27,960 nt of DNA, taken from assembly GCA_001566745.1 (NCBI GenBank), contig KQ964552.1:53483-81442 (forward strand), written 5' to 3'. The notes under the pieces were generated by a model, which worked only from the letters and a program-made list of their open reading frames with translations, searched no databases and was not told the DNA's origin. Shown one piece after another: positions 853 through 21,792 of the stretch (positions within the stretch are counted from its first letter, which is position 1; each line of letters starts with the position of its first letter). Source of the stretch: Conidiobolus coronatus NRRL 28638 (Eukaryota > Entomophthoromycota > Entomophthoromycetes > Entomophthorales > Conidiobolaceae). The translations under genes were made by a program, and so were the position numbers.

Positions 853-861
853 TTATGGGAT
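853..861 (-). promoter_or_regulatory. ATCCCATAA promoter element (NOP10)
   Basis: A perfect copy of the 9-mer ATCCCATAA (TTATGGGAT on the plus strand) lies about 97 bp upstream of the NOP10 ATG, in the gene's orientation. It is one of eight such copies in the window. Binding factor unknown. Confidence 0.55.
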
Positions 862-1037
862 AATATTAATCAATATTTCATCAAATTTTAACATTTAAAA
901 TGGAATAAAAACTATAAAAATTGATTAAACTAATCAAATGGATTTAGTATAATTATTTTTAAGCATACGTCGCATTCTATATATCTAATATACCATACAT
1001 TTCCCCAGCTATATAATTACTACATCAGTCCACTCAA

Positions 1038-1046
1038 ATCCCATAA
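1038..1046 (+). promoter_or_regulatory. ATCCCATAA promoter element (HYPK)
   Basis: A perfect ATCCCATAA lies about 89 bp upstream of the HYPK ATG in gene orientation. With the NOP10 copy about 180 bp away it forms an inverted pair inside the shared divergent promoter. Confidence 0.55.
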
Positions 1047-1134
1047 TTTAAATTAAGAAGTTACGAAATCATATATTCTGATTTATGTGTGAGAATATAG
1101 CTGAAATAACCAATACAATATTTTTTAAACAAAA

Positions 1135-1685
1135 ATGACTGAAAAAAAGCCAATTGAAAACGAAAATGTTGAAGATAACAGAGATAAAGACTTAGACGAA
1201 GAAGAAGAAGAAGTTGAAGAACAAGGAATTCAAGGACAAGCCAATAAAGATATGAAAAGTATGGCTGGTATGACTGAAGTTGAACAAACCCATTTACCTC
1301 AAACTCGCGTTAAAGAAGTAATGCTAATATTTTATTTTGATTTTTTATTTTACTAATTGTTGGCTTAGGCTTTAGAATTTTTCAAAAACGATGTTCAAAA
1401 GAGACAAACAGAAATTGCTCAATCGTAATTAATTAAAAAAATATTAGACTACATGCAATATTAACTCTAAATTTTAGCAAAAAAGCTCTTGATAAAATAA
1501 CCATTCAAAAAGAACATATTCCCATATTGGTAAATTATTTCAATTTTTACTTTTATTTAAAATTAATGATTGTTTTATTATAGAAAAATGAATTTGAATT
1601 GGATGAAACCCAAGCTGAAAATGTTTTAAGAGAAAATGGAGGCGACTTGAAAAAGGCTGTAGAATCTCTTTTATTAAAGGCTTGA
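1135..1685 (+). CDS. HYPK: HYPK-like NatA-associated chaperone protein
   Basis: HYPK proteins bind the ribosome-associated NatA N-acetyltransferase (Naa10/Naa15) and modulate it, and have chaperone activity. Four exons are supported by phase and splice sites: 1135..1317, 1369..1424, 1478..1529 and 1584..1685, giving 130 aa. Introns of 51, 53 and 54 nt begin GTAA and end TAG. The N-terminal half is acidic, with a run of glutamates around residues 22-28. The middle is a lysine-rich helix, and the C-terminal third (from about residue 90) is the UBA-like NAC-type domain. It carries the family features KITIQKEHIPIL, then a helix with ETQAENVLRENGGDLKKAVESL. The first exon alone would read on into a stop, which confirms the splice at 1318. 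The gene is divergent from NOP10. Confidence 0.9.
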
Positions 1686-3900
1686 TTATTGCTAATTAAT
1701 AACAATGAACTTTATTAACTTTCTCATTCTTATAACTGTGACAGTTTTTTATAACTACATAGATCATGTCATCATTTATACTGCTAAGAGATTTAATTAA
1801 TATATTTCATTTTATCAATTCTTAAGAAAAGTTTTATTGAACTAGCAGCTATCTAATTTTTATCTTCTATTTATTCAGCAATCTGTTAGAAGCGAACTCT
1901 GACATATTTGAAATATTTTGAACTAATTATATATAATTTGCTGGCTATTTTGCACTTTAAAACATCTATTTAAATAGTGTCCACAAGTTTAAATATATGT
2001 ATCATGTTTAACCTTTTCACCATTAAATTTATTATAATCAATCATAGCTACGTTATTATATGATTATATATCGCAAATGATTATATAAAAATAGCTGTAT
2101 AAATGAGATGACCATGTATATTTTTAATATTTTTCAATAAGGCTTATTAGCTGAATAATTTTTATAATTCTTTAAATTTCAAAGTAATGTGTTAAGTTTT
2201 GATGATTCTCAATGTTTAAAATAGTTGAATATAAATATGTATAGTTGCCAGTTTACTAGTTTCTGATCAAGTTAATAAATATAATATAAAGCTATGATTG
2301 GATGGAAAAAATAATACATTTCAAATGCTTAACACCTGAACTTTCAAATATTATAACTATAACATCAACAATTAAGGCTAAATTTAAAAGTTTATATGAA
2401 AGTTTATGGTTAACGAGGAAAATTTGCTCAAAAGTTTTTGATTTTTAGCTGCTTAAAGTCTATCAAAGAGTAACTTCTATTACTTAAAGTTAATAATATA
2501 GTATTTTGATATGATATTACCATCAATCCTCTATTAAATAATGACTATACACGATGAAAACTCGGTTATAAAAACTTTGAATAAAATCTGACCAATTTAA
2601 CCAAAATTATTCATACTAATATTTACCTATCACACAATACCAATTTTATATGGTGATCTATACAATTACAATGCTAAATTGGAAAATTAGTGGTTTATAT
2701 AGATTTATATAAATATTATATATAATATTCTAAGCTTATAGTATACCTTTGAAATTTATCTTAGCCTGTGTTACGAATTGTTGAAAGTATACTAGTTAAT
2801 AGTAGCTATTAGAATAGTCACCATATTAGCTTATTGCTTTTAAAGCTATTTCCTATAATTTTTATGTATGGTTACAAAGCTAACTATAAGCTATAGCTAT
2901 TAGACTGATTTTAATGATCTGTAATTTATGATATTTGAATTATTGAAAATATAATCTAAATATTACGATTACTCTATTCAAAAATAATAGTCCATTTAGA
3001 CGCTCTAAAATCAAAGATAATTTACCCACATAATTTCTATTTATTGCAGCTAAAATGATGTGCAAAGTAAGCATTTTTAACATATCTTTTGATTTACAAG
3101 TACCAGTTACTCGTATCAATAAAAAATTTAATGGAATAAAGTTGAATGATTTCAATAGCCCACATTGGTTGTTAAATGATAATAATATACTCTAATAGCT
3201 TTTGAAAAGAATCTGTGAACAACATTTTCACAAAATAAAAACTGAACTATATGTAACTATACACTAATATTAATAATTTTTCGAAATCAAATTCAAACCA
3301 CTTTAATTAAGCAGTCAAATCAATCAGAGTAAACTATATATATTATACTAATCGTAGGTATCTGATATTATATTAAAATCAAACAAGTATTAATCCTAAA
3401 AATAATTTTAAATACAGTATTGAGCTCGTGCTACTATATAGTTCATGTTAAAAAAACTATTATCAAGCACTATCAAATTCATAAAACTTAATTTGATTAG
3501 ATGTGAGCAACTGTGATTGGCTAAAAATTGCACTTGGAGAAATTAAATTTAGAATATATTAAAAAACTTATATGTTCGTAAAATTTTCAGCAATATTACG
3601 TGTAATGTATATATGCTATAATACCCAAACATATATATACTTCAATTTTAATTTTTCAACTCATTAAATGTAAAATATTTCCAAAATAGGCAATGTGACA
3701 TTTTTTAAATGCTTTATTACAATAAAACAGAATTTTATTAATTATGGTTTACAAAAAGTTTATACCCTATCTTATTCTCTTTATGTAAAAGCTAATAATT
3801 CACAATTCAAAATATATATAAAAATTCAAAAACATAATATAGTTATATATTCATTAATTATCGTATTGTTTTTATTTATTATTTGTATTGTTATTTTATC
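1686..3900. other. Long AT-rich intergenic region
   Basis: This stretch of about 2.2 kb separates HYPK from the AF4-like gene. I see only short open frames without conserved peptides, plus scattered words such as AGCTATTAG and long A/T runs. No tRNA, no transposase-like frame and no terminal repeats were recognised. The last few hundred bases must hold the promoter and leader of the gene starting at 3901. They contain TATATA-rich tracts (for example 3633-3642 and 3819-3830) but no ATCCCATAA copy. Confidence 0.5.
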
Positions 3901-6900
3901 ATGGATCCATCAAAACAAACTCCACATAGTACGCCAGTAATTGGAAGTAGATTAAAAGCTCTATCAAGAGAATTTGAAGGTCCTGATAACAGACATTCTT
4001 CAAAAAAAATTCCTAAAAAATCATTTACTAATCCTCGCTTAATTCCTGAAGGAACTCCTGTTAACTCCTTATTTCAAAACTTAATGCCACAGCGTAATAG
4101 TCCTATTTCAAGTAATAATTTGACTTCTCGGACCCCAAAAATTGCTGATTCTTCTTTTCAATATTCGGATGAAATAATACGCGAAGCTGTAAGTATATTT
4201 AAAAATTCAGTAGGTGGTCCTATTGATCCTTATTTTGTTGAAAAAATGGCTAAAAAACCTTCAGAAATTACTCAACTACTGACTGTTGCTAATCCTAATG
4301 AATCTAGTCAAATAAGTCATCCTTTAGGTCATAAAAGATACACCACCAACTTTCCACAAAAGTCTATTCCGCTATATAACCACTATGGGCATAATATACT
4401 ATACCACTCTTCTTGGCAAACTACATTTAATCCTAACGAAGGTAACCCTGTAGATCACATCGGGAGAACTCTCTACTTTGAAGATGCAGATAAAAAAGTA
4501 CATAAGATACCTCCTGAAATACCACCTTATCATCCAATGCAGAGAGCTAACTTTAGAAATGATAGAGTTAATCATGTTGGTTTAGGCAATAAGTCAAATG
4601 GTATTCAAGGTCAGCTTAATGACTTACCTCCACAAGCCACTCAAAATCCAAGCAATAATGGCTTGTCAGAAAGAAATATCAAAGATGAACCCGTAGCACA
4701 GACAGAAAAGGTTGAACAGCATATTCATACCGATACAGCTAACAAAATAGTAGAAAGTAATAAGAAATCAACGCCAGATGTTTCTAAAAAAGCTGAGAAA
4801 CTTGATACAAAGCCTGAGTCCAAGCTTGAGGCTTCAGCCGATGCTCAAGTCAGGGCGCCAGAAACAAATCTCCCGCAATCTAATATAAACACAACGGTAG
4901 CTATCAAGAAAGAGGAGCCAGAACAAGAGCCGGAACCTAAACGCATGCCCACTCCAGAGCCACTACAGCCATACTATAGTTTGATTAATCGAGATATACT
5001 AAAATTAAAAAAATCTGGATCTGAAGCTCTTATAAAGCTTTATTTAGAAATTCAAAAAACCTCTCAGGATGATGGCAAGCTTGGAGATGACCTAGGGTTG
5101 TTTGCTTTGCAATCATCTTTGAACTCTCTGAATTCAAAACTTCCACATAAATCATTAGATTTGTTAACTGCCAATGGAGGGAAAATGGTCGAAGCAGCCC
5201 GAGATTCGTTTATTCAGAACGTTAAGTCTCAAGGCAACGATATCTTATTTGATAAGGTTAATGGTGTTGGAAAGTGGAAAATACATCCCACAAACCTTAG
5301 AAAATCACCTGTATCAAAACCAGCTCCTGTTAAAATTGAAGAAAAGAGTCAAAAGATTACTAATAATGACGACACTGTAAACGAAGCTTCGCAGAAAAAG
5401 CAATCTCCTGATTCATCTAATGACGAAGTTAAAACAGAAAGAGGTGCTAAGCAAGTACAACAACCATTAAAGCAATCTTCGCTCAAATCAAAACCCAATA
5501 AGATCAGTCCAATCATAAAACTAACTTCAAATGCTGCTCCAAGTAATATCAAGCAAGAAGCAAAACCCGAGGTTAAAACTGAGAAGCAGCTAGATAATAT
5601 CAGCTTGTTAGCTCAAAATACTATACTTAAGCCAATACCTAATGTAAAATCTTCTGTTTCTAAAAACGATTCTAACGTTTTTGAAGCACCATCAAAGTCA
5701 GAAGACGCCCAAAAATCAATTATCTCAAAGAAAAACATTCTGCCAAGTGAAAAAACTAAGAGCGTCAACCCAAGCAAAGTTAAGTCAGTACCAATGCCGC
5801 CATCAGACACAAGTGCTGGCTCTTTGGGTGTCAAAAAATCATCAAAAATCATCTTAAAACCTAACAGTACAGCAGCTCAAAGCGCTCCAATGAAGAGAAT
5901 TATGGTAACTATCACATTACCTTCTCAAAAACAAATAGATTTCCAAAATAGATGTTTTAATAAGCTCCAAAAAGCTCAAAAGCTCAAAACAGTTGGCACA
6001 AAACCTTTAAATTCTAAAGAAAAGCGAGTTTTAGCTCAGTCTAACCATGATGACTATCTAAGCACTTCTCCTGAATATAAAGAATCGCGATCTAAAAATG
6101 TACAAAAACGTGCTAGAGAAGATGACCATATTTCACCCAATATTGACCAAGATATTTCCAAACAGTCTACAAACAGAGGGGCATCTAAAACTCTTGCTAA
6201 ATCACAGCGAAGAGATAGTAAGCAGCATTTATCTCCTATAACAGTATCTCAATCTCATAAAGAAGATAATGCAAGACCACCTGTAGTCAAAACATCCAGG
6301 GCATCCCCTCCTCCTCAGCTACATTCTTCATCTATGGCTCCAAAAATTGACTCCAGTAGCTCTAAATCAGCACGAGATGTCGAAGAGAAGCTATCAAGTT
6401 CACAATCAAAATTACCAGCGCAGCGACAGCAGTATTCATCTTCACAAGGCCTACTTAATGGAGTTATTCCTACTGCCACTCCACGGGATATGACAGACTC
6501 ACTTAAATCTAAGATTTCTAAATATAGTGAGGTTGCCAAAGCATGGAAAAACAAAGCGCAAAAAGTTGTTAATGATCCAGCAACGACAGAATTCGAAAAA
6601 AAGCAAGCTTTAGCTACTTATGTGGAATGCTCACTTATGTTTATTCACAATAGCGATATTAACGACTATACCCAAGAATACGACCCTTCACGCCAATGGA
6701 TGTCAATTGCAACAATGCTTGAACAGGCTGCAAAATACTTAAAGTTTTATGATGGAGGGTGTCTATATGGGCTTGTCAACATCCTTTGTGCTATGTCATA
6801 CAGTTCTATTGCATTCTACTACAACAAGAAAGTTGACCCCACAAATCCAGCTGCTCAAAATGAAGGATTGCTAAAGAATGTCGCTAGTTATTATACAAAA

Positions 6901-7116
6901 TCTGGAATGAGTTTATCGGCGGGGATAGCCGCTTTAAATATTGAAACCTTAACAAAAGAACTCCCTGGAACAATGGCTAAATGCAAAGGTGGGAAAATTG
7001 AATTTCCTAGCGAATTAGTTTATTTCAAATGGGCGTCTGTTATTCAATTTGCTCAGTCTGTAGTTGACGAGTATATATCAAATAACAAAATGCAATCAAT
7101 CAGAAGTGGTCAATAA
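3901..7116 (+). CDS. Large disordered protein with AF4/FMR2-like C-terminal domain
   Basis: This single-exon gene encodes 1071 aa. The first in-frame ATG is at 3901 (MDPSK); six codons upstream of it are open but lack an ATG. Residues 1 to about 860 are rich in S, K, P and Q and look disordered, except for a Tyr/His/Asn-rich block around 90-210 that may be conserved. Residues about 865-1071 look alpha-helical. Motifs such as YVECSLMFIHNSD, followed by MLEQAAKYLKF and a helix with LCAMSYSSIAFYYNKK, resemble the AFF-family C-terminal homology domain, the dimerising scaffold part of the super elongation complex. Fission yeast has an AFF4-related ELL-binding protein (Ebp1), so a fungal SEC scaffold is plausible. 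The disordered part has six PsiKxE SUMO-type motifs. The domain call is by eye and remote; a different nuclear scaffold remains possible. Confidence 0.5.
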   Translation: MDPSKQTPHSTPVIGSRLKALSREFEGPDNRHSSKKIPKKSFTNPRLIPEGTPVNSLFQNLMPQRNSPISSNNLTSRTPKIADSSFQYSDEIIREAVSIFKNSVGGPIDPYFVEKMAKKPSEITQLLTVANPNESSQISHPLGHKRYTTNFPQKSIPLYNHYGHNILYHSSWQTTFNPNEGNPVDHIGRTLYFEDADKKVHKIPPEIPPYHPMQRANFRNDRVNHVGLGNKSNGIQGQLNDLPPQATQNPSNNGLSERNIKDEPVAQTEKVEQHIHTDTANKIVESNKKSTPDVSKKAEKLDTKPESKLEASADAQVRAPETNLPQSNINTTVAIKKEEPEQEPEPKRMPTPEPLQPYYSLINRDILKLKKSGSEALIKLYLEIQKTSQDDGKLGDDLGLFALQSSLNSLNSKLPHKSLDLLTANGGKMVEAARDSFIQNVKSQGNDILFDKVNGVGKWKIHPTNLRKSPVSKPAPVKIEEKSQKITNNDDTVNEASQKKQSPDSSNDEVKTERGAKQVQQPLKQSSLKSKPNKISPIIKLTSNAAPSNIKQEAKPEVKTEKQLDNISLLAQNTILKPIPNVKSSVSKNDSNVFEAPSKSEDAQKSIISKKNILPSEKTKSVNPSKVKSVPMPPSDTSAGSLGVKKSSKIILKPNSTAAQSAPMKRIMVTITLPSQKQIDFQNRCFNKLQKAQKLKTVGTKPLNSKEKRVLAQSNHDDYLSTSPEYKESRSKNVQKRAREDDHISPNIDQDISKQSTNRGASKTLAKSQRRDSKQHLSPITVSQSHKEDNARPPVVKTSRASPPPQLHSSSMAPKIDSSSSKSARDVEEKLSSSQSKLPAQRQQYSSSQGLLNGVIPTATPRDMTDSLKSKISKYSEVAKAWKNKAQKVVNDPATTEFEKKQALATYVECSLMFIHNSDINDYTQEYDPSRQWMSIATMLEQAAKYLKFYDGGCLYGLVNILCAMSYSSIAFYYNKKVDPTNPAAQNEGLLKNVASYYTKSGMSLSAGIAALNIETLTKELPGTMAKCKGGKIEFPSELVYFKWASVIQFAQSVVDEYISNNKMQSIRSGQ

Positions 7117-7269
7117 TTAATTCAATATGTATTTTTAACAATTTTGCTCAATAAAGTTATTTATTTCATTGCAATTATATAACTTTTAATTACTGGTCTA
7201 TTGTATTTTTAATAAAATTTTTACTATATAAACAAAATAGAAAAAATACTCATTAGAGTTTATACATAT

Positions 7270-7274
7270 AAAAA
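7270..7274 (-). terminator. Pol III terminator of tRNA-Ile
   Basis: On the minus strand a run of five T follows five bases after the tRNA's discriminator base, as expected for RNA polymerase III termination. Confidence 0.6.
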
Positions 7275-7279
7275 TACAT

Positions 7280-7353
7280 TGCTCCCAACAGGGATCGAAC
7301 CTGTGACCTTGGCGTTATTAGCACCACGCTCTAACCAACTGAGCTATGGGAGC
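7280..7353 (-). tRNA. tRNA-Ile (anticodon AAU)
   Basis: A complete 74-nt cloverleaf folds by hand. It has a 7-bp acceptor stem (GCTCCCA with TGGGAGC, then discriminator A), a D arm GCTC-AGTTGGTTA-GAGC and a T arm ACAGG-TTCGATC-CCTGT. The 5-bp anticodon stem TGGTG/CGCCA contains one T-G pair. The loop is CTAATAA, so the anticodon is AAU, normally deaminated to IAU in eukaryotes and reading Ile codons. There is no intron. A-box and B-box (GGTTCGATCCC-like) promoters are intact. CCA is not encoded. Confidence 0.95.
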
Positions 7354-7771
7354 TATTATATTTATATTAAGCATATATTTAATTTGATATTATTTAATAT
7401 AATTTATATTGTTTTGTATTCTCATTAATGTCTATATATATTTTTGCCTAAATCATATTTTATCTTTTACAACATCTCCTTAATTTTTTCTGTTAAGCTG
7501 CATATATTTCTACAACATAAAATATTATTACAACTTCTACCATAGCGAGTGTATCGTTACTAAATTGTAGTTCATTAAATTAAATGATCTGTAGAAAAAT
7601 GATAATATATAATTTATTAATTGGATAACGTGCTATCATTCAAATAGATCAATTACATGAAAGATAGTTAAGTGTGTCTATAATATTGTCAAAAAATAAT
7701 AATTATTCTAAACTAGTTAACAAGAAACGATTCTAACGAAAATATACAATAATTAGGAGCAGCTATTAGAA

Positions 7772-8322
7772 TTATTCTTGCATTTCGTCTGAATCATACT
7801 CCTCGTCATCATCATCATCTTCGTCATCATTATTTCCACTTGCAACAATATTGCTTTGACTGGCTTGATTAGCAACTTGCTCTCTCAATTTAATTACAGT
7901 TTCGTGATTACCGGTAACTACTTCATTATAGAGTTGAATGCATTGCTTAGCAACCTAATTTGTAAAATATTAATATGCTTAAATAAATTTTTTAAAAATT
8001 AAAAATTACAATATAAGAGGAATCATCTTCTAAAACAGTTTCAAATTCATCGCTCATAATTTGATTTAAGATATCCTCAATATCTTCGATTTCAGTCTTT
8101 TTACCATCTAAAATTATTAAATAATTAAAAAATATAATATTAAACAATATGTATTAAATTACTTTTGCCAAAATATTCAACAACTACATCTATCATCCAA
8201 TCTCTCTTCTCTTTAGATTCAACACCTCCCCATTCCATTTGAACGGCTAATTTTAAAGCATCCCATTTTTTAAAGAGTAAAGTTACACCTTCTCTAAAGG
8301 CTAAAGCATTAGGATGTACCAT
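7772..8322 (-). CDS. TSR2: Pre-rRNA processing protein Tsr2
   Basis: Tsr2 is the escortin that carries the ribosomal protein eS26 into the nucleus and hands it to assembling 40S subunits; its loss impairs 20S pre-rRNA processing. Three exons on the minus strand, 8322..8163, 8107..8010 and 7954..7772, join in phase to 146 aa; both introns are 55 nt. Exon 1 carries the family signature KKWDALKLAVQMEWGG and the helix KRDWMIDVVVEYF. Exon 2 has the conserved EIEDILNQIMSDEFETVLED, which allows for the substrate-binding acidic helices. Exon 3 ends in a long acidic tail (about residues 127-146), which Tsr2 uses to bind eS26. Length and domain order are normal. It is divergent from the TFIIIC subunit gene, and both have an ATCCCATAA element about 80-90 bp before the ATG. 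Confidence 0.93.
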
Positions 8323-8412
8323 ATTATATAGTTATTTTAATATTAAATAATCAAGTAATTTTTCGTGCAATGTGGTTAACTTGTTTTTAATTTTTATTAT
8401 AAATTCAGAAAT

Positions 8413-8421
8413 TTATGGGAT
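8413..8421 (-). promoter_or_regulatory. ATCCCATAA promoter element (TSR2)
   Basis: A perfect copy, read on the minus strand, lies about 91 bp upstream of the TSR2 ATG. The extended context TTTATCCCATAAAT is near-palindromic at its AT flanks. Confidence 0.55.
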
Positions 8422-8566
8422 AAAAAAATCCAATATGCCTTATGTTGCATATTGATATAATAGAGATGAGTTTAGAGTACAAAGGTCTAAAAGCTAATCA
8501 ATTATATATGTGCACTGGGACCAGGCATAATAAGATAAAAACCTTGTTTAGTATGTATTTGAGCAA

Positions 8567-8575
8567 ATCCCATAA
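8567..8575 (+). promoter_or_regulatory. ATCCCATAA promoter element (TFIIIC subunit)
   Basis: A perfect plus-strand copy lies about 82 bp upstream of the ATG at 8657. It is the partner of the inverted copy at 8413, with roughly 145 bp between them. Confidence 0.55.
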
Positions 8576-8656
8576 AAATATGTGTGCAATCTAAGGAGTT
8601 AAAATACTTTTTAATTTTGAATTATGACTATTAAAAATTAATCGATTTTATTAACC

Positions 8657-9286
8657 ATGCTAGATACTCATAATCTGAAAAAAGTAGATAGCGATGATGA
8701 ATATGAAATTTATGAAGAAGTAATAAAAATATATTTATCTAATTTATTATAGCTAATCGAGAGTTTTTACTTGTTTTAGGAAACTTATGTAACAATGGAA
8801 TTTGACTCTGACAAGTGGGGTACTTTACCAAAGCCTGGTCAAACCTATTGCATGACTGTAAGGATTTAATTTTTTTATTTATAAGGCATGCACATTAATT
8901 AATGGCTTCTAGGGACTTGACACTGATCAGCCTTATTTTCAAGCTGCAGATACTACCTTTAGGGGTCAATATGATGAGGCTATTGGAACTGATATATTAT
9001 TAGTTGTGCCTAATAATTTTTTAAATAAGGATAATAATACTAGCGGAAATTCTAATAAAAATGAAAATGAGCAGGGTAATTTTATGATAGCTACTATGTA
9101 TCCATTTAGATTACTAATTCAAATATAGAAAACCAATTAAAATATCTAACACACACTACCAAAAAATTGAATATGCTTCAAATTGACTTATTAGCTAAAA
9201 AGACAAAAGATGAAGGAATAAACGCTGATCAAGAAGCAAAGCCTAATTACCCTTTTGACTCTTATGATGTAATGGACTTGGATTAG
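8657..9286 (+). CDS. GTF3C6: TFIIIC subunit with triple-barrel domain (GTF3C6/Sfc7-like)
   Basis: This looks like the small TFIIIC subunit (human GTF3C6, S. pombe Sfc7, C-terminal half of yeast Tfc7). It pairs with the tau95/GTF3C5 subunit and helps recruit RNA polymerase III to tRNA genes. Four exons, 8657..8719, 8780..8857, 8913..9075 and 9129..9286, give 153 aa. The barrel domain starts with ETYVTMEFDSD (about residue 22) and continues MTGLDTDQPYFQAADTTFRG and YDEAIGTDILL, matching the family pattern of a beta strand, GLDTE-P and G-Y-E--LGT. The third intron (9076..9128) is needed: reading through it ends at a TAG, whereas splicing yields LKYLTHTTKKLNM, which matches the post-barrel helix of the human protein. 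The tail ends in acidic DSYDVMDLD. Confidence 0.87.
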
Positions 9287-9482
9287 CATTCGAAAAATGC
9301 TATGTTTCTATAAAATATCGCTGTCCAGTAATATCGCACTCACACTGTAATGTATAAATAAAAGCTTATTTTAATCTAAAATCAACTTAATTAGTAATAA
9401 ACAATATATAAGAAAAACTATGCGTAGTAGTGTATTGAATTTATATAAATAAAAGAACAGTTTATAAGATATTTGATTGTTT

Positions 9483-9902
9483 TTAATCTTGTTTAGCTTC
9501 TGGGATTGAGGGCTTAACTTCACTTTTATCAGGTCTAATCCTCCAACCTCTAACCTTTCTCTTCATTAGATTTTTCTGACTTTCTTCTAAAGCAGCATTG
9601 AAGTCTTCCATATTAGGAGGTTCGGGGTATACAAATTCGTGGTCTAAAGTAACGATAGCTTTCTTATAACTGGCATCTCTGTAGCGAGAATTGGTACCGG
9701 GCTCTCTTTTAATTTTACCCTGGTATAACATAGTACGAACGTCAACGGGCTTAACTTTATAAATATTGGTTAAATAATCTTGAATATCTAACTTAGATAG
9801 GTGGATAGGAACTTTGAAAGCTACTTGATTAGGAGGCAATTGAGTTCTGATCATGGTGAAAACTATATTGGGGAAATAGACTAATTTCTTTCCTACGGTC
9901 AT
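9483..9902 (-). CDS. MRPL23: Mitochondrial ribosomal protein uL23m
   Basis: uL23m (Mrp20 in yeast) is a protein of the mitochondrial large ribosomal subunit at the polypeptide exit tunnel, by analogy with bacterial L23. The single exon encodes 139 aa from the ATG at 9902; the frame is open six codons further upstream but without an ATG. It begins VGKKLVYFPNIVFTMIR, then FKVPIHLSKLDIQDYLTNIY and VKPVDVRTMLYQGKIKR. These are the usual uL23m strand-helix-strand features, including VDVRT near residue 55. A KKAIVTLD strand and a basic KRKVRGWR extension follow. The start is consistent with human and fungal homologues, which have short N-termini. It is divergent from the LYR-protein gene and convergent with the TFIIIC subunit gene, whose 3' end is about 200 bp away. 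Confidence 0.92.
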   Translation of the reverse strand: MTVGKKLVYFPNIVFTMIRTQLPPNQVAFKVPIHLSKLDIQDYLTNIYKVKPVDVRTMLYQGKIKREPGTNSRYRDASYKKAIVTLDHEFVYPEPPNMEDFNAALEESQKNLMKRKVRGWRIRPDKSEVKPSIPEAKQD

Positions 9903-10075
9903 ATTGAATAAATTAAACAAATATTATTTAAACTGAAAATTTGAATATTGAGTTATTGTGGTGTTTGGAAAACTTCTATAATTATTATATATATTGTATT
10001 TTTATGTTAATTTTCAATCTTAATTTTGGCGTAGTTAAAATTAAATTTATATTTTTCAGCTTTGAACATGTTATA

Positions 10076-10084
10076 TTATGGGAT
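10076..10084 (-). promoter_or_regulatory. ATCCCATAA promoter element (uL23m)
   Basis: A perfect minus-strand copy lies about 174 bp upstream of the uL23m ATG, the longest distance of the set. Only about 20 bp separate it from the inverted copy serving the LYR gene. Confidence 0.5.
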
Positions 10085-10104
10085 TTAAGTAAAAACTAAA
10101 ACCT

Positions 10105-10113
10105 ATCCCATAA
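10105..10113 (+). promoter_or_regulatory. ATCCCATAA promoter element (LYR gene)
   Basis: A perfect plus-strand copy lies about 118 bp upstream of the ATG at 10231. Together with the copy at 10076 it forms a tight head-to-head pair in the divergent promoter. Confidence 0.55.
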
Positions 10114-10190
10114 TTTTAATTAGTCCATGGATAATATTTATTATTTTTAATTAGTGGTGGCATTATTTAAAAACTAAGTCAACTTCACTA

Positions 10191-10217
10191 ATAAAATATA
10201 AAATATAAAATATAAAA
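10191..10217 (+). repeat. Heptamer microsatellite (ATAAAAT)n
   Basis: Three full copies and a partial fourth copy of ATAAAAT lie just before the ATG of the LYR-protein gene, probably in its 5' leader or at its transcription start. Simple tandem repeat; no function is implied by the sequence alone. Confidence 0.8.
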
Positions 10218-13234: not shown

Positions 13235-13937
13235 ATCTGTGTACTTTTATTTTGATTAAGCGGGGGAATGAGGAGGGCTAGAGGAGATTGTTGTTCTTAC
13301 CTATATGAAATTGGAACTAATTGTCAGAGCAATTAATCCAATTAAGCTTAGCTCATTTGTATTATTTGGCATACTTTTATCATAGCTCTCCCGCTATAAA
13401 ACTATATTTCATTGAGTGAAATAAACCATTTAACTGCCAATAATCATACCATATTGCTTGTTAATAAGAGTATATACATATATAACTAGCCTAATATACT
13501 TATCCACAGCTCCTTCTTTAATTTATTCTACTATTTAAATAAAACACTGAATACATTAATATTTACCCTAATTATCACTAACTCTTTCCTCTCAGTTTTG
13601 CCTTACCCCTTAAGTTTATTTATAAATTATTCAATTTTATCTTATTGGCTAATTTGATCATTATTTCATTCTTTGTCTATTCAGTTTTGGAATAGTAAAG
13701 GCGACATAATGTAAATTGGTTAAAGAGTTTAACGCTGTATTTGTTAGAAGGGTTTAGTGTCAGTATTCCAGTTATTTAGCTAGTAATTAGGTATATTATT
13801 CAGCACTAATGTAATTGCAATTATGGTTATTAGCATAAAACAAACTTGAAAATCCCATAAATAATAACTCAAATAAAACTCTATAAATTCTATCAAAGTG
13901 GAAAAATGTGTAAAAGATACCTAATAAAAAATTGAAT
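13235..13937. other. Intergenic region
   Basis: AT-rich spacer of about 700 bp. A short purine-rich G-run stretch (about 13260-13285) directly follows the stop codon of the upstream gene and is probably in its 3' untranslated region. An ATCCCATAA element lies near the right end. No gene or RNA recognised. Confidence 0.5.
13852..13860 (+). promoter_or_regulatory. ATCCCATAA promoter element (unknown gene)
   Basis: A perfect plus-strand copy lies about 78 bp upstream of the ATG at 13938. It is the only copy on this list attached to a gene of unknown function. Confidence 0.55.
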
Positions 13938-14640
13938 ATGAGTGGTTTTGAAAGATTTAATATAGACTCCAAATTTGACTACGATATTTCAAAGTATGAT
14001 AAGTTAATTCAAAATTATAAGAGTAATCCTTATTTGTATTTAAATAGACGATATGATATGTACACTAAAGGTAAAAATATTAAAACTGTATTAAACATAC
14101 ATTATTTAACAATATTTTTAGTATTTGAGTTTGAAAACACTGATTTTAAGTTAGAATTAATGATATTAAAATCACCTAATGGGTAAGATTATGTAGATTT
14201 AATTGGCTAAAGTTAATTAACAACTATTATTAGAGTATTCACCTTACACATTAAAGATCCATCTACTGAAATTCAATCTTTGAAATTTAATGAAAAATTA
14301 TTCAAAGCTCCAGCTTCAAAAAACGCAAATACTTTGACCAAAGATGATGAGCTACTCACATTAAATGTCAACGGCGCTGAGGGATTGAGTGTTAAAATTG
14401 GTATAACTTTTAAATTAATTGAATTAACTCAAGAATTGGAAAATGATATTAAGCCTATTTATAGCCAGGTAGAATCATATAAATCATATTAGCAAACTTA
14501 ATTACTTATAAAATATTTAGCTTTATGACAAAAATTATTTATTCATGGCACAATTAGCAAGTAATAGGCCTATTGATAACTGGACTTTAACCCAGCCAAG
14601 GATCCAAGATGGTGACAATCAAGATTTAGAAGAAGAATAG
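13938..14640 (+). CDS. Unknown 182-aa protein, four exons
   Basis: Four exons join in phase: 13938..14070, 14122..14182, 14234..14468 and 14521..14640. The three introns (51, 51 and 52 nt) start GTAA, GTAA and GTAG and end TAG. The protein starts MSGFERFNID; frames upstream lack an ATG. Alternating hydrophobic strands suggest a beta-rich domain in the middle: VFEFENTDFKLELMILKS, VFTLHIKD, LTLNVNGAEGLSVKIGITFKL. The N-terminus is rich in Tyr, Asp and Asn (NPYLYLNRRYDMY) and the C-terminus is acidic (DLEEE). There is no signal peptide, membrane segment or zinc motif. I do not recognise the family. Splice consistency and the upstream ATCCCATAA element support a real, constitutively expressed gene, probably in basic cell function. 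Confidence 0.72.
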
Positions 14641-14709
14641 AAAATTTAGTGTATTTTAATAAATTTTGTTTTACAAAAAATAATGGATCTTTTTTATGTT
14701 TTATCATTT

Positions 14710-15772
14710 CTATTCTAATTTACCTTCTTTTTTAGCTAATTTAGCTAATTTAGCTCTCTTTTGATCTTGAACGAAGAAGTTATAGAAGAGGGCAAGCATG
14801 GAGATCATGTAGAACCAGAGAATAACAGAGAGTTGAGTAGAGTAGTGTTCAGCGGGGTTAGGTCTCAAAATGAAAGCGTTTATAATATTATAGGTGGCTT
14901 GGACGAACATACAGGTGAATTGGAACATTTGGCAAGTTGTGATATATCTCTTGATAAGAGAGACTTGCTTAATGCCAACAGCTGAGCAGAAGTAGTATCC
15001 ATACATAATAACGTGGATTAAAGAGTTGAAAGCTGCAGAAAAGTAAGCTTCACCATTGGGAGCAATAAGAGTCACATACCACCAAATTCCAAAGATTGTA
15101 GAATGGTGATAAACATGAAGGAAAGAAATTTGACGATAGTTCTTCTTTACAATCATAATCATAGTATCAACAAATTCCCAAATTTTAGAAATATAGAATA
15201 CCCAAACAATTTTGGCCATCTAAACTATCATTAGTACGGTAAAGATAAATATATTTAGTTACTTACAGGTATCCCATTACGAGTATGATCGGCAGGGTTT
15301 CCAAATAGAGAGTACTTGTCATGAATTGACTGTAATAAGATACCATAGAACATGTAGCCAGATAAGAGAGCTAATCCAAGATTATGAAGTAAAGAAAAGA
15401 ATTTGACATCCAATCTAGGCAAGTTTTTAGTAATTTTCTTGCCAATAAAGACAGCGAGTAGATATCCAATAATAATACTCAATACGTGGAAAGGATTCAT
15501 TAAGGGAAGATGCTTAGCTAAAGGGGATTGATTGTTTTCTAAGAAAGTTTTGATGGTAGAAACTTGAGCTGGAAAGTATTGAATAGCTTGATCTTCAAGA
15601 ATATTTAAAACGGGCTTGCTGCGTTCTATCCATGAAGATACCAAATTAATGATAATATCAGCTGGAGCGCTGTAGTAGCCATAGGTACCATCTGCTGAAG
15701 CTGTATTATTCAATTGAAAGAGTATTAGATCAACTTTGATTAAAGCTATAGTTTTATAATTTACTTACACAT
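14710..15772 (-). CDS. Very-long-chain/PUFA fatty acid elongase (ELO family, GLELO-like)
   Basis: ELO enzymes of the ER membrane condense malonyl-CoA with acyl-CoA, the first step of fatty-acid elongation. Three exons on the minus strand, 15772..15769, 15700..15267 and 15219..14710, give 315 aa. The first coding exon is just ATGT, followed by GTAAGT; downstream TCT-TCA-GCA keeps phase. Without it the long frame has no ATG. Family marks are KIWEFVDT (158-165), the catalytic histidine box HVYHH (181-185), NSLIHVIMYGYY (211-222) and several membrane helices. The tail is Lys-rich. The text around SPLAKHLPLMNPFHVL, FSLLHNLGL, QISFLHVYHHS and APNGEAYFSAA closely resembles the Mortierella gamma-linolenate elongase GLELO, which suggests C18 PUFA elongation toward arachidonate. 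Substrate choice is inference. No ATCCCATAA element lies upstream. Confidence 0.92.
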
Positions 15773-16873
15773 TTTTGATTATTTCTGTTATAACAAAATT
15801 TAACAAATCTTATTGGCAAAGAAGATTAGATATGAAGAAGAGATCACGTATTTATACATAGAAGTTTGATTCATTAAACGCAAAATAGAATGAATTAACT
15901 TGAATGAGTCATACGTAAATCGGAAAAAGTGTACAAATTAATTTATGCTATGCTCATTGTCACAAGAGAGTGACGAAATGTATATATTGGATTTAATTGG
16001 CTCTTTAAGGCTAATTTATGTTTCTCAAATATCTATTTCAGTAAAGTGCTTAATTAATTCTTATTTAATCACCATCTCATCTCAAAAATTCGGAAAAATT
16101 TGAACAATTAGAGGTTTATATGAAAATCTCAATCTTATCAGTTAAATTTTATAATACAGTAATTTCATTCTACCTAAAGTGTTCATATTAACAAAAATAA
16201 TAATTTTTTATGTGAAATATGGATTAAAAGCTAATAATCGCAATATAATTATAAGAATATCATATTTAAAATGAAACTTTGCTGTACAAATAAAAAATAA
16301 TCTCAATAATACAATTACTCCAAACTGGTTAACATGATTATAATTTGATTATTGTAGAGTATAATTAGAACATAATTTATATCCTCTTAATTATACTTTA
16401 ACAGTAGTTTATACAAATATAAATCAACCTTTTTTCTTCATTTAGCTAACATTGATTAAGTAAGGAGTATTATACTTAATTATGGTTTTTAACTTTAATC
16501 TTGACGCCAACTCATTAAGGTAAGAGTTGTATCCATTTTAATTTTATACTTAACTGAAGATAAGATTTAAAACTTTTATCTTTAATTGAGTTAAACAATA
16601 ATCCAATAAACTTTAGTTTAAAAACACGTCGCCAAATAAAAGTTTATTTTAACCAGTTTTTACATAAATATTCCCATATTAAACCAATTGAAACTTCCAA
16701 GATTTTGCACTTTATAGAGCAATAAAGATTTATTTTAAAGAACAAATACAAAGCAGCGTATTATTGACATATGAAAAAGTAGGTTCAATTAATTAATACG
16801 TCATTAATGTAATTATATATCATACTTGATTTAGCCACAACAACAAATATTTGTTTATTTAAATATTAATAAA
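15773..16873. other. Intergenic region before the gap
   Basis: AT-rich, about 1.1 kb, holding the elongase promoter at its left end. At 16482..16519 a plus-strand ATG opens 12 codons (MVFNFNLDANSL) and is followed by AG and a good donor GTAAGAG. This could be a first exon of a gene running into the gap, but no convincing second exon follows before 16873, so it is not called. Confidence 0.4.
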
Positions 16874-17426
16874 NNNNNNNNNNNNNNNNNNNNNNNNNNN
16901 NNNNNNNNNNNNNNNNNNNNNNNNNNNNNNNNNNNNNNNNNNNNNNNNNNNNNNNNNNNNNNNNNNNNNNNNNNNNNNNNNNNNNNNNNNNNNNNNNNNN
17001 NNNNNNNNNNNNNNNNNNNNNNNNNNNNNNNNNNNNNNNNNNNNNNNNNNNNNNNNNNNNNNNNNNNNNNNNNNNNNNNNNNNNNNNNNNNNNNNNNNNN
17101 NNNNNNNNNNNNNNNNNNNNNNNNNNNNNNNNNNNNNNNNNNNNNNNNNNNNNNNNNNNNNNNNNNNNNNNNNNNNNNNNNNNNNNNNNNNNNNNNNNNN
17201 NNNNNNNNNNNNNNNNNNNNNNNNNNNNNNNNNNNNNNNNNNNNNNNNNNNNNNNNNNNNNNNNNNNNNNNNNNNNNNNNNNNNNNNNNNNNNNNNNNNN
17301 NNNNNNNNNNNNNNNNNNNNNNNNNNNNNNNNNNNNNNNNNNNNNNNNNNNNNNNNNNNNNNNNNNNNNNNNNNNNNNNNNNNNNNNNNNNNNNNNNNNN
17401 NNNNNNNNNNNNNNNNNNNNNNNNNN
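16874..17426. other. Assembly gap (553 N)
   Basis: All bases are undetermined. The gap ends only 13 bases before the tRNA-Gly 3' end, so whatever lies next to that tRNA is not visible. A repeat at this place would explain the gap but cannot be seen. Confidence 0.99.
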
Positions 17427-17428
17427 GT

Positions 17429-17434
17429 AAAAAA
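17429..17434 (-). terminator. Pol III terminator of tRNA-Gly
   Basis: On the minus strand a run of six T follows five bases after the tRNA discriminator base, a standard RNA polymerase III stop. Confidence 0.65.
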
Positions 17435-17439
17435 CTTAC

Positions 17440-17510
17440 TGCAATGGCGGGGAATCGAACCCCGGTCTACCGCGTGGCAGGCGGTAATTATACCACTAAA
17501 CCACCATTGC
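17440..17510 (-). tRNA. tRNA-Gly (anticodon GCC)
   Basis: A complete 71-nt tRNA folds by hand. The acceptor is GCAATGG with CCATTGC and discriminator A. The D arm contains the A-box TGGTTTAGTGGTA. The anticodon stem ACCGC/GCGGT encloses the loop CTGCCAC, giving GCC, which reads GGC/GGU glycine codons. The T arm has GGGGTTCGATTCCCC (B-box GGTTCGATTCC). No intron, no encoded CCA. Confidence 0.95.
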
Positions 17511-17649
17511 TTATCACTTGGTGTATTTTTACTTTTATATTTTATATCTAATAGTTATCTATTAAACATTTCAACTTTGTTGTTTATTAGATTAATTTAA
17601 TACTATGTATATATTTAAATTTTAAATTATTTATTTGAATTCATTTGAT

Positions 17650-20600
17650 TTAGACGTTAATAGGCTGAATTAATTTCCATCCATTATTAATTGATTCCTG
17701 ATCTGCTTGACCAATGATAACACTGGCTCCCTTAGGATAACTGGAATGTAAGAGCTTTTCAGCTATTACCTTCAAATCAGTTTCCTTAGCGGTTAAGAAA
17801 GTATGACGTCTAGCCTTGGCCATATCAAGAGTAATTCCTGAAGTCCACTCTGAGAGACCTTCTTGACTTGCTGAAAGTGGGTGATCAATAGATTGGAATA
17901 CTGATAACTTGGCTTCGTTCAATTCACGCTCTTCAAACTTGTGATTTAAAGCCCATTCAAGACTTTGTTTGTATACCTGTTCACAGTTTTGATATGGGTT
18001 AGGATCTCTGTAACTGTAGAAAGATAATGTACCACGAGTAGAGTCATGGGTAGCACCTCCTCCATAAGCACCTCCCTTTTCACGGATTTCTCTGTGAAGG
18101 TAGAGATGAGTTAATAAGGTAGAGAGGATTTGGTAATGGGGACTAGTAGGATCTTGGAATGGAACAGTAGAGAGTGCTCTTGATGAGTAGTAAGAGTTGA
18201 AGGGATAAGCAAAGGTATTAAGATCAGTAGGGTTAATTTCAACGCTTTCTAAAGAAATAGGTTGATAAGATTCTTGAGCAGAAGTTGAAACTAATTGATT
18301 CTGGAGCTTAGCAAAGAGGGATTCGTGCTCATTATGAGTGGTTTGCTCAGATACAACGAAAGCCTTTAAAGTGCTGGGATTAATCAATAATTTATGTAAA
18401 CTCTTGAGGTGTTGAGTGATTTGAGGTAAAAGAGAATCTACATTGTTGGCAAGATAAGTCATGAAACGAGTTTGGTACATTCCAGAGTATATATCAGTGA
18501 TTTTCTATAAATATTGTTAATAAAATTAAAATTGGCATAATATGTTAAAATCTTACAGCTGATTCCGATAAAATACCACTAGCAAAGCCTCTAGCAAAAG
18601 TATGACCTGAGTCTGCTACTGATCCATTTAAGGAAGAAGCGGAGTTCAAGATTAAAGTCTTAATACGATCGGGCTGATCAAAGTTGGTTTCTAAGAGGAT
18701 TTTGGTCATTAATCTATACATTTCGCTAGATTTGTCGTTTAAGGCATGAGATGCAAAAGTAACACCATGAGTGTAACCTTCTAAGTTAGCCAAAGAGCTA
18801 GTGACATATGGTGAATAAGAAATTCCACCAGTAGAAAGTAGGATTTCTTCATCTAATTCAGCCATTGATTTGTCGTGGCAACCTAAGAAGCTTAAACATT
18901 CGCATAAAAGTGGAACAAATGGTCTTAAGTGAGCAGGGATATCGTTTGGAAGAGATTGTCTAATTTTAAGGTAGCTTATTCCATTTGTATTAGTATCTCT
19001 AAAAGTGATAGGAACACTAGTGTTAGTTGATGATGTAATAGGATATGACTTGGGATTCTTTTGAATGTCGTCAATTGTTAATGTAGGTAAACAGCTAAGA
19101 TCTAAATAATAATGAGTATAGTTATATTTAATTATATCTAGTTATTACCTTCTTTAGACATTTGTCTACGTTGAAGCTCAGCGTTGAATTCTTGGATTGT
19201 AGTTTCATCTTTTTCTGATTTAACCTTATTTTTAACAATATCTTTAAGCATAGAGTTTTCTTGCTGCTGGATTTGCTGTTCAAATTCTTTTGATGGTTCA
19301 GCAATATAGATTAATTTTCTGGGATTGTCCAATAAATATTTTCTGATTAAACCTTCGAAAAAGTCACCTTTAGCAATTTCACTTCTAAGCTTAGCTAAAT
19401 GCTATAAAATATATTAATACAATAGAAGCAAAGAATATTTAGATTTCTAAACTAACCTGGTCAATTTCTAAAGGATCTAAAGGATTTAATCCATAGTTCC
19501 AGTTATTCATAATACTTTGAACCAATCTAATACCAAAGTTGCTTCCACGATGACGGAAAGATAACTCGATGTTCAATAAAGCACCTTCAATTAAATCTTT
19601 GCTGAAACCTTCCTTGGAAACAGTTTCTAAAGTTTCATAAATAGTTTTCTCAATCTTTTCTAAGTTACTTGGGTTGACGCCTTGTACACCAATAGATAAT
19701 GAAGTGATGGGAGATTGTGCGTTGTAGCCAGTGGTAGGAGAGTACTCAGTGCCCAAATGTGTATCCAAAAGAGCTTTTTGAAGGGGTGCGCCACTAGTAC
19801 CGGTCAAGAGAGAAAATAGTAATCCCAAACTCATTGTAGTAAATGTATCAGTGACTTCATTGGTTAACCAAGATACAGAAATTTTATGTTGCTGTTCGGG
19901 ATTAAGCATAGGATCGAAAGGACCTTTAACAACGACTTTTCTGGGAGCATTCCAGGTGGGGTGTGTAGCAAAGCTTGGTAAGGGAGATGGCTTTGGAGAA
20001 GTTTCAAGAGTGTGAGTTAACTTTTCGTTAAGCTTGCTCAGGTGTTGATCAAGAGGGAAATTACCAAAAGTAAAGATTTTGGCATTGTTAGGATGGTAGT
20101 GATCATCATGGAATTTTTTAAGATGTTCCCAAGTGAGCTCAGGAATATTTAGAGGGTGGCCTCCGCTAACTTGATTGTATACACAGCCTTCATAGAGATG
20201 TTTTTGATGATCATAATAGTAAACTGCACCATGATCACTGAAAACACCTTTCATTTCATTAAATACGATACCTTTAAATTCCCATTCGTTGGTTTCAGGA
20301 TTCTTTTCTATTCTCCATCCTTCTTGAGAAAAGTCATACTCGCTGAGAATTGGTTTAAATACAGAGTCTAAATATACGCTCATTAGGTTGTAATAATCAG
20401 TGGGGTTTTGAGTGGAAAATGGATATTGAGTAAAATCATTAGCAGTCCAAGCGTTCATGTAAGTAGCTAAGGAACGAGGCATCATCTTGAAAAAAGGGTC
20501 TCTTACTGGGTAGGTTTGAGATCCACATAAAGTAGTATGTTCCTAATAATAGTTAATATGTGTTATAATAATTAAATCTCATAAAATAATTACCAAAATA

Positions 20601-21016
20601 TGAGCTACACCATCTGAAGTGTTATTTAATGTGGGGAAACCAATGCTAAATACGTTGTTTGACTCATCTTCTTTAGCCAAATGTAAGAGCTGAGCTCCTG
20701 ATTTTTGATGCTCCAATACTACACCAGTTAATCCAAGCGATTTAATATCTCTGTTCTAAAATAATCTTTATCAGCATTGCTAAACTTTTAAAAAAAGCTA
20801 TATGTAAAAATACCTCTTTCACTACAAACCCTTCAACAACTTTTCCAGGTTGATAATCTATTAAGACCTCTATTAGAACTGCATGATATTATAAACGTTA
20901 ATAATCATTACCTTTAACTATAGTAGAGTATAATTTTGAAAATTTAAATTATTAGCATTTAACTTAGACTTCACAAATGAAGGACTTGAAAGTCTCTGAA
21001 ATCTATTTATCATCAT
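17650..21016 (-). CDS. CYM1: Mitochondrial presequence protease (PreP/Cym1), M16C metallopeptidase
   Basis: Cym1/PreP is a matrix zinc protease that destroys cleaved presequences and other short peptides. Exons with secure phase are 20857..20814, 20755..20594, 20542..19457, 19401..19149, 19101..18557 and 18504..17650, about 981 aa plus the N-terminus, matching the family's roughly 1000 aa. The inverted zinc motif HILEH is split by the intron 20593..20543 and followed by TTLCGSQTYPVRDPFFKM. The downstream glutamate lies in GIVFNEMKG. The linker half has a Gln-rich coiled segment (QQIQQQENSML). The C-terminal half carries GGAYGGGATHDSTRGTLSFYSYRDPN. The candidate start at 21016 gives a Met/Arg/Ser/Asn-rich mitochondrial presequence. 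Its frame, however, meets a TAG just before the donor at 20911, so exon 1 (21016..20912) is one base out of phase with the rest. Confidence 0.9.
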
Positions 21017-21792
21017 CCTAAAATAAATATATATTACAAAATTATGACAATGATGATGATATTTTTATTTTTTATATATTGCTCCGGATCCATTGTAATT
21101 AATTTATGTTTTACTCTTTTATTAGCTTTATTATGGGATTGTACTGGGTATTTATAATATGAAATCATTGTCCATTACAATGAAAATTTGTGTAGTATTA
21201 ATACTAATTGAGCATTAGAATGAGAACTTTTGTAAATACAAATAATAATTTGTAAAAATGTTTATTTAAACTGCTCATGCATTTATATTATCTCAACTAA
21301 TCACGATATATACAAGTACATACATTAATTTAATATTAAATCAATATAAGTTTATTTTTAGTTGGTTTAAATATTAGATCCATGTAATAAATACACAATA
21401 TAAAGATATATAATAAACAGATATATCTTGAAGACTTGAATTAAAAGAATAATAGTTATCAATATTAATAAATATTCTTTGAAGTAAAATAAAGCAACTA
21501 ATATTAACTTTAAATTTTAATTATTATATAAAATAGTTGTAAAAACTGTTATTAACTAGCTATATAATGTAGTTATATCATCAAATACTTCAGTTTTAAC
21601 TTTCAATATTTATATTATACATCTGAAGTAATAGGTATTAGTCTAAAACATTGTTAGATTAAGTGTTAGTTGCATTTAAAAACAATCACACAGTTTAATA
21701 AGTTGAATTAAAATATAGAATGATAAAATAGAGAAAGAAGTGAGTAGATTAGCCTGATTTTTAATGATATTATATAAAAGAAAAATAGAGAA
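21017..21792. other. Intergenic region between SEC9-like gene and CYM1
   Basis: AT-rich spacer. The right-hand gene (SEC9-like, minus strand) ends at 21793, so most of this is its 3' flank plus the CYM1 promoter, which has an ATCCCATAA element at 21131..21139. No other gene seen. Confidence 0.5.
21131..21139 (-). promoter_or_regulatory. ATCCCATAA promoter element (CYM1)
   Basis: A perfect minus-strand copy lies about 115 bp upstream of the proposed CYM1 ATG at 21016. Its position supports that start region even though the first exon's frame is broken. Confidence 0.5.

What the first reader, a model, noticed from the sequence alone, without database searches (positions are those of the whole stretch)
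853..21139. A 9-bp promoter element, ATCCCATAA, precedes eight growth genes in the same orientation
Perfect copies lie at 853, 1038, 8413, 8567, 10076, 10105, 13852 and 21131. Each sits about 75-180 bp upstream of an ATG (NOP10, HYPK, TSR2, TFIIIC subunit, uL23m, LYR protein, unknown 182-aa gene, CYM1) and each reads ATCCCATAA in the direction of its gene. I saw no perfect copy elsewhere in the window. With this base composition I would expect well under one copy by chance (rough estimate). Both flanks are nearly always A or T. The genes lacking it (elongase, GSIII, SEC9-like, AF4-like, TATA/STRE gene) are the ones more likely to be specially regulated. This looks like a core promoter element or factor site for ribosome-biogenesis, mitochondrial and other constitutive genes. 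I do not know it as a described fungal motif.
Basis: partly seen in the sequence, partly recalled or inferred. Interest (0 to 1): 0.8.

Follow-up and report, generated by a model that had tools for sequence, protein, structure and literature searches.

The report
snRNA-type promoter word before growth genes
In an early-branching fungus, many everyday growth genes share a one-directional nine-letter start signal that matches the switch slime moulds put before their small RNA genes, so a small-RNA control system may have been taken over to run protein genes.

Summary
The window has exactly eight ATCCCATAA copies, each pointing at a gene start 77-173 bp away; 0.39 are expected by chance. The window is from Conidiobolus coronatus NRRL 28638 (100% identical glutamine synthetase). 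In the readable part of its genome WATCCCATAAW occurs 393 times against 32 for the reversed word; one-base variants at seven tested positions reach at most about twofold excess. The anatomy is fixed: motif, TATA 20-25 bp downstream (129 matches against 24 at 35-40 bp), A-rich leader, ATG at a median of 98 bp. Named genes with it are mostly housekeeping: ribosome biogenesis, RNA modification, mitochondria, DNA repair, transcription. Two P450s, a transporter, a protease and a histone lack it. My searches found no fungal report, but the last eight bases match DUSE ([AT]CCCA[AT]AA), the element about 60 bp upstream of Dictyostelium spliceosomal and other small-RNA genes. It also shares ATCCCA and TATA spacing with the plant snRNA element. 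The fungus encodes SNAPC3, a DNA-binding subunit of the snRNA activator SNAPc. Best reading: an snRNA-type promoter element, probably bound by SNAPc, that serves many mRNA genes. Binding, start sites and conservation in relatives are untested.

The parts
853..861 (-). ATCCCATAA copy of NOP10 (ATG first base 756, gap 96)
824..831 (-). TATAAATT 21 bp downstream of the NOP10 copy
1038..1046 (+). ATCCCATAA copy of HYPK (ATG 1135, gap 88)
1072..1079 (+). TATATTCT 25 bp downstream of the HYPK copy
8413..8421 (-). ATCCCATAA copy of TSR2 (ATG 8322, gap 90)
8567..8575 (+). ATCCCATAA copy of the TFIIIC subunit (TFIIIC_sub6) gene (ATG 8657, gap 81)
10076..10084 (-). ATCCCATAA copy of uL23m (ATG 9902, gap 173)
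10044..10051 (-). TATAAATT 24 bp downstream of the uL23m copy
10105..10113 (+). ATCCCATAA copy of the LYR/UQCC2-CBP6-like gene (ATG 10231, gap 117)
13852..13860 (+). ATCCCATAA copy of the unknown gene starting at 13938 (gap 77)
   Evidence: no Pfam match
13882..13889 (+). TATAAATT 21 bp downstream of the 13852 copy
21131..21139 (-). ATCCCATAA copy of CYM1/PreP (ATG 21016, gap 114)

Best explanation
ATCCCATAA is a strict, one-directional promoter element of Conidiobolus coronatus that belongs to the snRNA-gene type (Dictyostelium DUSE, plant USE, animal PSE). It sits about three helical turns (start to start) upstream of a TATA-like site and so about 60 bp upstream of the transcription start. 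Most likely SNAPc, or a SNAPc-like complex holding SNAPC3, binds it and places TBP, TFIIA and TFIIB on the TATA site. In this fungus the element serves many housekeeping mRNA genes and probably at least one snoRNA gene. Shown: sequence, strictness, direction, TATA spacing, gene class in a sample, presence of SNAPC3. Inferred: start-site position, SNAPc binding, activation, and shared descent with DUSE/USE.
For: Excess 393 v 32. Direction: of 38 copies with both flanks held, a coding start 30-300 bp away is found downstream on the same strand for 21, divergent for 8 (5 of these belong to window pairs that carry their own copies), upstream on the same strand for 1, downstream on the opposite strand for 1 (threshold 8). 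TATA at +20-25: 23 of 58 copies against a simulated mean of 7.8, largest 20 in 2,000 runs; 15 of the 39 copies on which I first saw it and 8 of 20 fetched later; genome-wide 129 v 24. A-rich from about +60. DUSE is [AT]CCCA[AT]AA about 63 bp upstream of many ncRNAs and of D. purpureum spliceosomal RNA genes (PMC3188802 passages), about 60 nt from the start, with genes of both Pol II and Pol III (PMC7919456 passages). Plant USE is RTCCCACATCG with TATA at -28 to -30, four helical turns away in Pol II genes and one turn nearer in U6 and U3 (PMC9845283 passages). SNAPC3 (PF12251) E 7.7e-56 at C46:74313-74972. SNAPC3 and SNAPC4 bind the PSE just upstream of TBP, setting a defined distance to the start (PMC9758055 passages). 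Motif plus TATA stand 220 bp upstream of the C/D snoRNA snR61 in L001.
Against: No spliceosomal snRNA gene was found in the sequence searched, so the key link, the same word before U1-U6 of this fungus, is untested. DUSE allows A or T at our positions 2 and 7. Position 2 shows no excess of variants here (114 v 118), and among the position 7 variants (121 v 66) ATCCCAAAA is no commoner than the others in the sequence held (2, against 3 and 2). The plant USE matches in only its first six bases. The passages I saw do not show that SNAPc binds DUSE. Only about 28% of copies genome-wide (129 matches, some doubled, of about 445 copies) and 23 of 58 held copies have TATA at +20-25. In human snRNA genes a TATA downstream of the PSE favours Pol III (PMC9652321 passage), whereas most of these genes are mRNAs. 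A short A/T-flanked CCC word can arise twice.
Confidence: 0.58

Rival explanations
1. A dedicated sequence-specific activator (for example a Myb/SANT, C2H2 or CSL protein, or a general regulatory factor in the role of Rap1, Tbf1 or Reb1) binds ATCCCATAA and drives a growth regulon. The likeness to DUSE and USE is convergence.
For: Gene class resembles the growth regulons of other fungi (the comparison is recalled). Recalled, not tested: the reverse complement fits a loose CSL consensus, and CCCATA also occurs in Rap1 sites. Divergent pairs often carry one copy per gene, as factor sites do. One-base variants at positions 1, 7 and 9 are up to twofold in excess, as for a factor with some tolerance.
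Against: Tight TATA spacing and one-way orientation are more than recalled yeast factor sites usually show. Match to DUSE in both sequence and inferred position.
Confidence: 0.35
2. The copies drive unannotated small RNAs that happen to lie just upstream of protein genes.
For: One copy precedes snR61 and one precedes a GC-rich island ending in T7 (L014). A SNORD52 match below the gathering score (E 0.14) lies downstream of the L057 copy, over the predicted protein start.
Against: With a start about 50 bp past the motif end and ATGs at a median of 98 bp there is no room for a small RNA in most promoters. The average leader is A-rich and not GC-rich. At gathering score snR61 is the only Rfam match within 500 bp downstream of a copy on its strand.
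Confidence: 0.04
3. Chance or base composition.
For: Single copies do occur by chance: one lies inside a PPR reading frame on the wrong strand (L027 minus, L046 4634), and the reversed word occurs 32 times.
Against: 12-fold excess over the reversed word, strand bias and spacing.
Confidence: 0.01

Closest known systems
DUSE, Dictyostelium upstream sequence element ([AT]CCCA[AT]AA)
   Same: TCCCATAA matches the consensus letter for letter; about 60 bp upstream of the (here inferred) start; DUSE serves genes of both Pol II and Pol III
   Different: In the passages I read DUSE stands before ncRNA genes; here mostly before mRNA genes, in a fungus, with a TATA-like site 20-25 bp downstream in part of the copies and stricter letters
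Plant snRNA upstream sequence element USE (RTCCCACATCG)
   Same: Shares ATCCCA and a TATA about three helical turns downstream
   Different: The last five bases differ; plant USE is described there for snRNA genes
Animal proximal sequence element bound by SNAPc
   Same: Same place just upstream of TBP, defined distance to the start; SNAPC3 present in this fungus
   Different: Human PSE sequence is unlike this word (recalled); the human use described is at snRNA-type genes
Fungal growth-regulon sites (PAC, RRPE, Rap1, Tbf1, Reb1, HomolD; recalled)
   Same: Target genes of ribosome biogenesis and growth
   Different: Different letters; no such tight TATA spacing recalled for most

Membership tests
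snRNA-type element (DUSE/USE/PSE) | Sequence fits DUSE [AT]CCCA[AT]AA | tested here: met
   Bases 2-9 are TCCCATAA; consensus from PMC3188802 passage
snRNA-type element (DUSE/USE/PSE) | Same tolerance as DUSE (A or T at its first and sixth base) | tested here: inconclusive
   Position 2 variants 114 v 118, no excess; position 7 variants 121 v 66, but ATCCCAAAA is not favoured in the sequence held
snRNA-type element (DUSE/USE/PSE) | Sequence fits the full plant USE RTCCCACATCG | tested here: not met
   Only the first six bases fit
snRNA-type element (DUSE/USE/PSE) | About 60 bp upstream of the transcription start | tested here: inconclusive
   Start inferred from TATA at +20-25 and the A-rich leader; no 5' ends mapped
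snRNA-type element (DUSE/USE/PSE) | Fixed orientation and helical spacing to TATA (plant type) | tested here: met
   129 matches at 20-25 bp v 24 at 35-40 bp; about 28% of copies
snRNA-type element (DUSE/USE/PSE) | Stands before snRNA/ncRNA genes | tested here: inconclusive
   snR61 downstream of one copy; one unnamed GC-rich island; no spliceosomal snRNA in the sequence searched
snRNA-type element (DUSE/USE/PSE) | Organism has SNAPc | tested here: met
   SNAPC3 PF12251 E 7.7e-56, above cut-off; SNAPC1 and SNAPC4 not tested
snRNA-type element (DUSE/USE/PSE) | Bound by SNAPc | not testable with these tools
   Needs binding data
Known fungal growth-regulon sites (Rap1, Tbf1, Reb1, PAC, RRPE, HomolD) | Consensus sequence | not tested
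   Consensus recalled only; by eye none equals ATCCCATAA
CSL site | Binding by a CSL protein | not tested
   Loose consensus recalled; one paper search gave nothing

The most novel reading that the evidence does not exclude
In this fungus, and perhaps its lineage, the snRNA activator SNAPc or a close derivative has become a general factor for housekeeping mRNA genes. It uses a DUSE-type word plus TATA and so couples small-RNA, ribosome and mitochondrial gene expression through one promoter code. By parsimony the DUSE/USE word would then be an ancient eukaryotic promoter element.
Probability: 0.45. Interest if true: 0.9.

Novelty: new variant of a known kind. Interest (0 to 1): 0.78.

Why it matters
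snRNA-type promoters and SNAPc are treated as special to small RNA genes (abstract and passages of PMC9758055), and a paper on DUSE says it was not expected to be conserved outside Dictyostelia (PMC7919456 passage). The same word with similar geometry at many mRNA promoters in a fungus would mean the boundary between snRNA-type and mRNA-type initiation has moved in evolution. It gives a simple, testable promoter code for a group of fungi for which my searches found no described promoter element.

Tried and rejected
Chance: rejected. Repeat or mobile element: the 39 copies printed share no flank beyond A/T richness; of 63 raw copies held, 59 are distinct places, and the four dropped are second views of the same places in overlapping loci (L027, L028, L046). 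Rap1, CSL, Staf/ZNF143: considered from memory only, kept as leads. A literal search for the word gave 308 papers; of the 30 listed none concerns a fungal promoter motif by its title, and I opened none. Paper searches for a Conidiobolus or early-diverging-fungus promoter motif: 3 papers, listing only, none about it by title; none. Fungal CSL: none. SNAPc with fungi: searches listed, none about SNAPc in fungi by title. PMC5415576 was looked up for Conidiobolus, CSL and Myb and mentions none. The L014 island was tried against Rfam (no credible match) and folded (z +0.83, not structured beyond chance). Random genome tiles were mostly withheld (14 of 20 wholly N), so a genome-wide gene-class test was not possible. 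Gene-class labels and the ten control genes were picked by me after seeing the sequences. The TATA distance was first seen in 39 copies; the genome-wide counts include those, of which 15 have it. The control spacing of 35-40 bp falls in a slightly GC-richer stretch, so 5-fold overstates the excess; against the other bins it is about 3-fold. In one search two control starts were set wrongly (PSMD12, PPR); one search repeats them with the right starts and the outcome is the same (the PPR variant lies at 170 bp, not 178). Only the first 30 genome copies, in contig order, were held with 1.5 kb flanks; they are not a random draw.
Full report
Observation. One search finds eight perfect copies, four on each strand, at the stated places, against 0.39 expected. 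Gaps to the proposed ATGs are 77-173 bp (the TFIIIC start is one base earlier than typed there). Pfam confirms Nop10p, HYPK, TSR2 and TFIIIC_sub6 and uL23m, a LYR/UQCC2-CBP6 protein and PreP/CYM1. The eighth gene is unnamed.

Source. The window's glutamine synthetase is 100% identical (97% of the query) to that of Conidiobolus coronatus NRRL 28638; the next named are Neoconidiobolus thromboides (74%) and Entomophthora muscae (75%). The held genome is 17.5 Mb in 186 contigs, but much of it is withheld: of 20 tiles of 10 kb, 14 are wholly N and about 48 kb of 200 kb are readable. I take the whole-genome counts below to refer to the readable part.

Genome-wide excess and strictness. WATCCCATAAW: 393 places, against 32 for the same word read backwards. 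Among the first 100 exact copies listed, 88 have A/T on both flanks (my comparison of the lists), so the total of exact copies is about 445. With one mismatch allowed, 2,814 against 2,287: most of that excess is in the exact word. By position, with A/T flanks, counts against control are: p1 152/87, p2 114/118, p3 224/210, p6 67/83, p7 121/66, p8 87/66, p9 93/46. So variants at positions 1, 7 and 9 may work in part, and those at 2, 3 and 6 show no excess. Positions 4 and 5 were not searched.

Direction and position. I held 59 distinct copies (8 window, 51 other). For 38 with enough sequence on both sides an automatic search for a coding ATG 30-300 bp away found 21 downstream on the same strand, 8 divergent, 1 upstream same strand, 1 downstream opposite strand (threshold 8; at threshold 15: 17, 5, 0, 1). 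Five of the divergent eight are window genes with their own copy. Reading the gene models, I could place an ATG for 31 of the 51 non-window copies: median 98 bp, quartiles 84-156, 29 of 31 within 60-200 (one search gave the same without one copy). These placements are mine, some on weak coding scores. The other 20 include introns, withheld sequence, non-coding targets and chance copies (one lies inside a PPR frame on the wrong strand). Among the first 100 copies of the genome, adjacent pairs within 700 bp are 5 divergent, 1 tandem, 0 convergent; the window adds 3 divergent.

Architecture. TATA starts 20-25 bp after the motif in 23 of 58 copies (simulated mean 7.8, sd 2.6, largest 20 in 2,000 runs). 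Genome-wide, ATCCCATAAN{20,25}TATA occurs 129 times and ATCCCATAAN{35,40}TATA 24 times; a few places count twice where TATATA gives two matches (4 such pairs in the 100 listed). Base composition turns A-rich about 60 bp past the motif start, after a small GC rise at +40 to +60. If TATA lies near -30, the start is about 60 bp from the motif start and the leader about 50 nt. Start sites are inferred, not mapped.

Genes. Forty predicted proteins downstream of the 51 non-window copies were scanned (the other 11 had no usable reading frame, were duplicates or were left out); 26 of 40 had a Pfam match at E 0.01 and 24 of 40 exceed the curated cut-off. The 24 are Plus-3 (RTF1-like), Rad9, Bmt2, a JmjC/F-box protein, NDUFA5, LYRM2-like, Med31, Nop16, Sec1 family, Rpp20, an SMC-like ATPase, a gyrase-type ATPase (by reading, topoisomerase II), Dus, Dim1, a PPR protein, Emg1, RNase H2 subunit C, an EF-P-like factor, DUF1751, NDUFA7, Pet100, Thg1, riboflavin synthase and a PIN-domain nuclease (Nob1-like). 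The two weaker ones are LOH1CR12 and TRAPP. Ten genes without an exact copy within 400 bp upstream were scanned: two P450s, an amino-acid transporter, a Zn2Cys6 factor, an M36 peptidase, a histone H2A (by reading; its Pfam match is below the cut-off), a PHD protein, PSMD12, RIO1 and a PPR protein. In the window glutamine synthetase, the elongase, the SEC9-like, AF4-like and 12419 genes lack it too. So the element marks conserved housekeeping genes, but not all: PSMD12 and RIO1 lack it. The PPR gene has TTCCCATAA 170 bp upstream, and glutamine synthetase has ATACCATAA at 140 bp. This is a small sample, picked and labelled by me.

What it is. The word is DUSE-like. DUSE, [AT]CCCA[AT]AA, lies about 63 bp upstream of many Dictyostelium ncRNAs and upstream of all D. 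purpureum spliceosomal RNA genes (PMC3188802, passages). It is associated with Pol II and Pol III genes, lies about 60 nt from the start, and was not expected to be conserved outside Dictyostelia (PMC7919456, passages). I recalled DUSE and then confirmed it in these papers. The plant element RTCCCACATCG shares ATCCCA and has TATA four helical turns downstream in Pol II genes and one turn nearer in U6 and U3 genes (PMC9845283, passages). SNAPc binds the animal counterpart just upstream of TBP, through SNAPC3 and SNAPC4, and contacts TFIIA and TFIIB (PMC9758055, abstract and passages). C. coronatus encodes a strong SNAPC3 homologue. One motif+TATA promoter stands 220 bp upstream of the C/D snoRNA snR61 (L001). 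Another, in L014, stands before a GC-rich stretch of about 105 bases that begins 31-33 bp past the TATA start and ends in seven T, with no credible Rfam match.

Mechanism. Most likely SNAPc or a derivative reads ATCCCATAA, sets TBP and TFIIB on the TATA site about three turns downstream, and so fixes direction and start. In this fungus the device is used for many housekeeping mRNAs. The strong rival is an unrelated activator with a look-alike site. Deciding between them needs the snRNA promoters of this fungus, start-site maps and binding data. No relative's genome was held (one search says so), so conservation is untested.

Noticed in passing
L014:1566-1677 (+): GC-rich island of about 105 bases after ATCCCATAA and TATATATA, ending in T7; a candidate Pol III-type small RNA gene; no credible Rfam match, fold not beyond chance.
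   Followed up: partly
L001:1281-1199 (-): C/D snoRNA snR61 downstream of a motif+TATA promoter with no clear protein ORF between.
   Followed up: partly
L009:1400-1472, L018:1386-1459, L069:47-128: Three tRNA genes end about 21-42 bp upstream of a motif copy in the same orientation; more than I would expect, not tested.
   Followed up: no
G000:C46:74313-74972 (-): SNAPC3/SNAP50 homologue in a 539-aa open frame.
   Followed up: partly
L033:2268-2276 (-), L026:2690-2698 (-): One-mismatch words TTCCCATAA and ATCCCACAA followed by TATA at 20-25 bp: possible working variants.
   Followed up: no
window 16874-17426: Run of N in the window between the elongase and CYM1 genes.
   Followed up: no
L046:4634-4642 (-): A perfect copy inside a PPR coding frame, opposite strand: probably chance.
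   Followed up: yes
L057:1-59 (-): SNORD52 match below the gathering score (E 0.14), overlapping the start of the predicted protein downstream of the motif.
   Followed up: no
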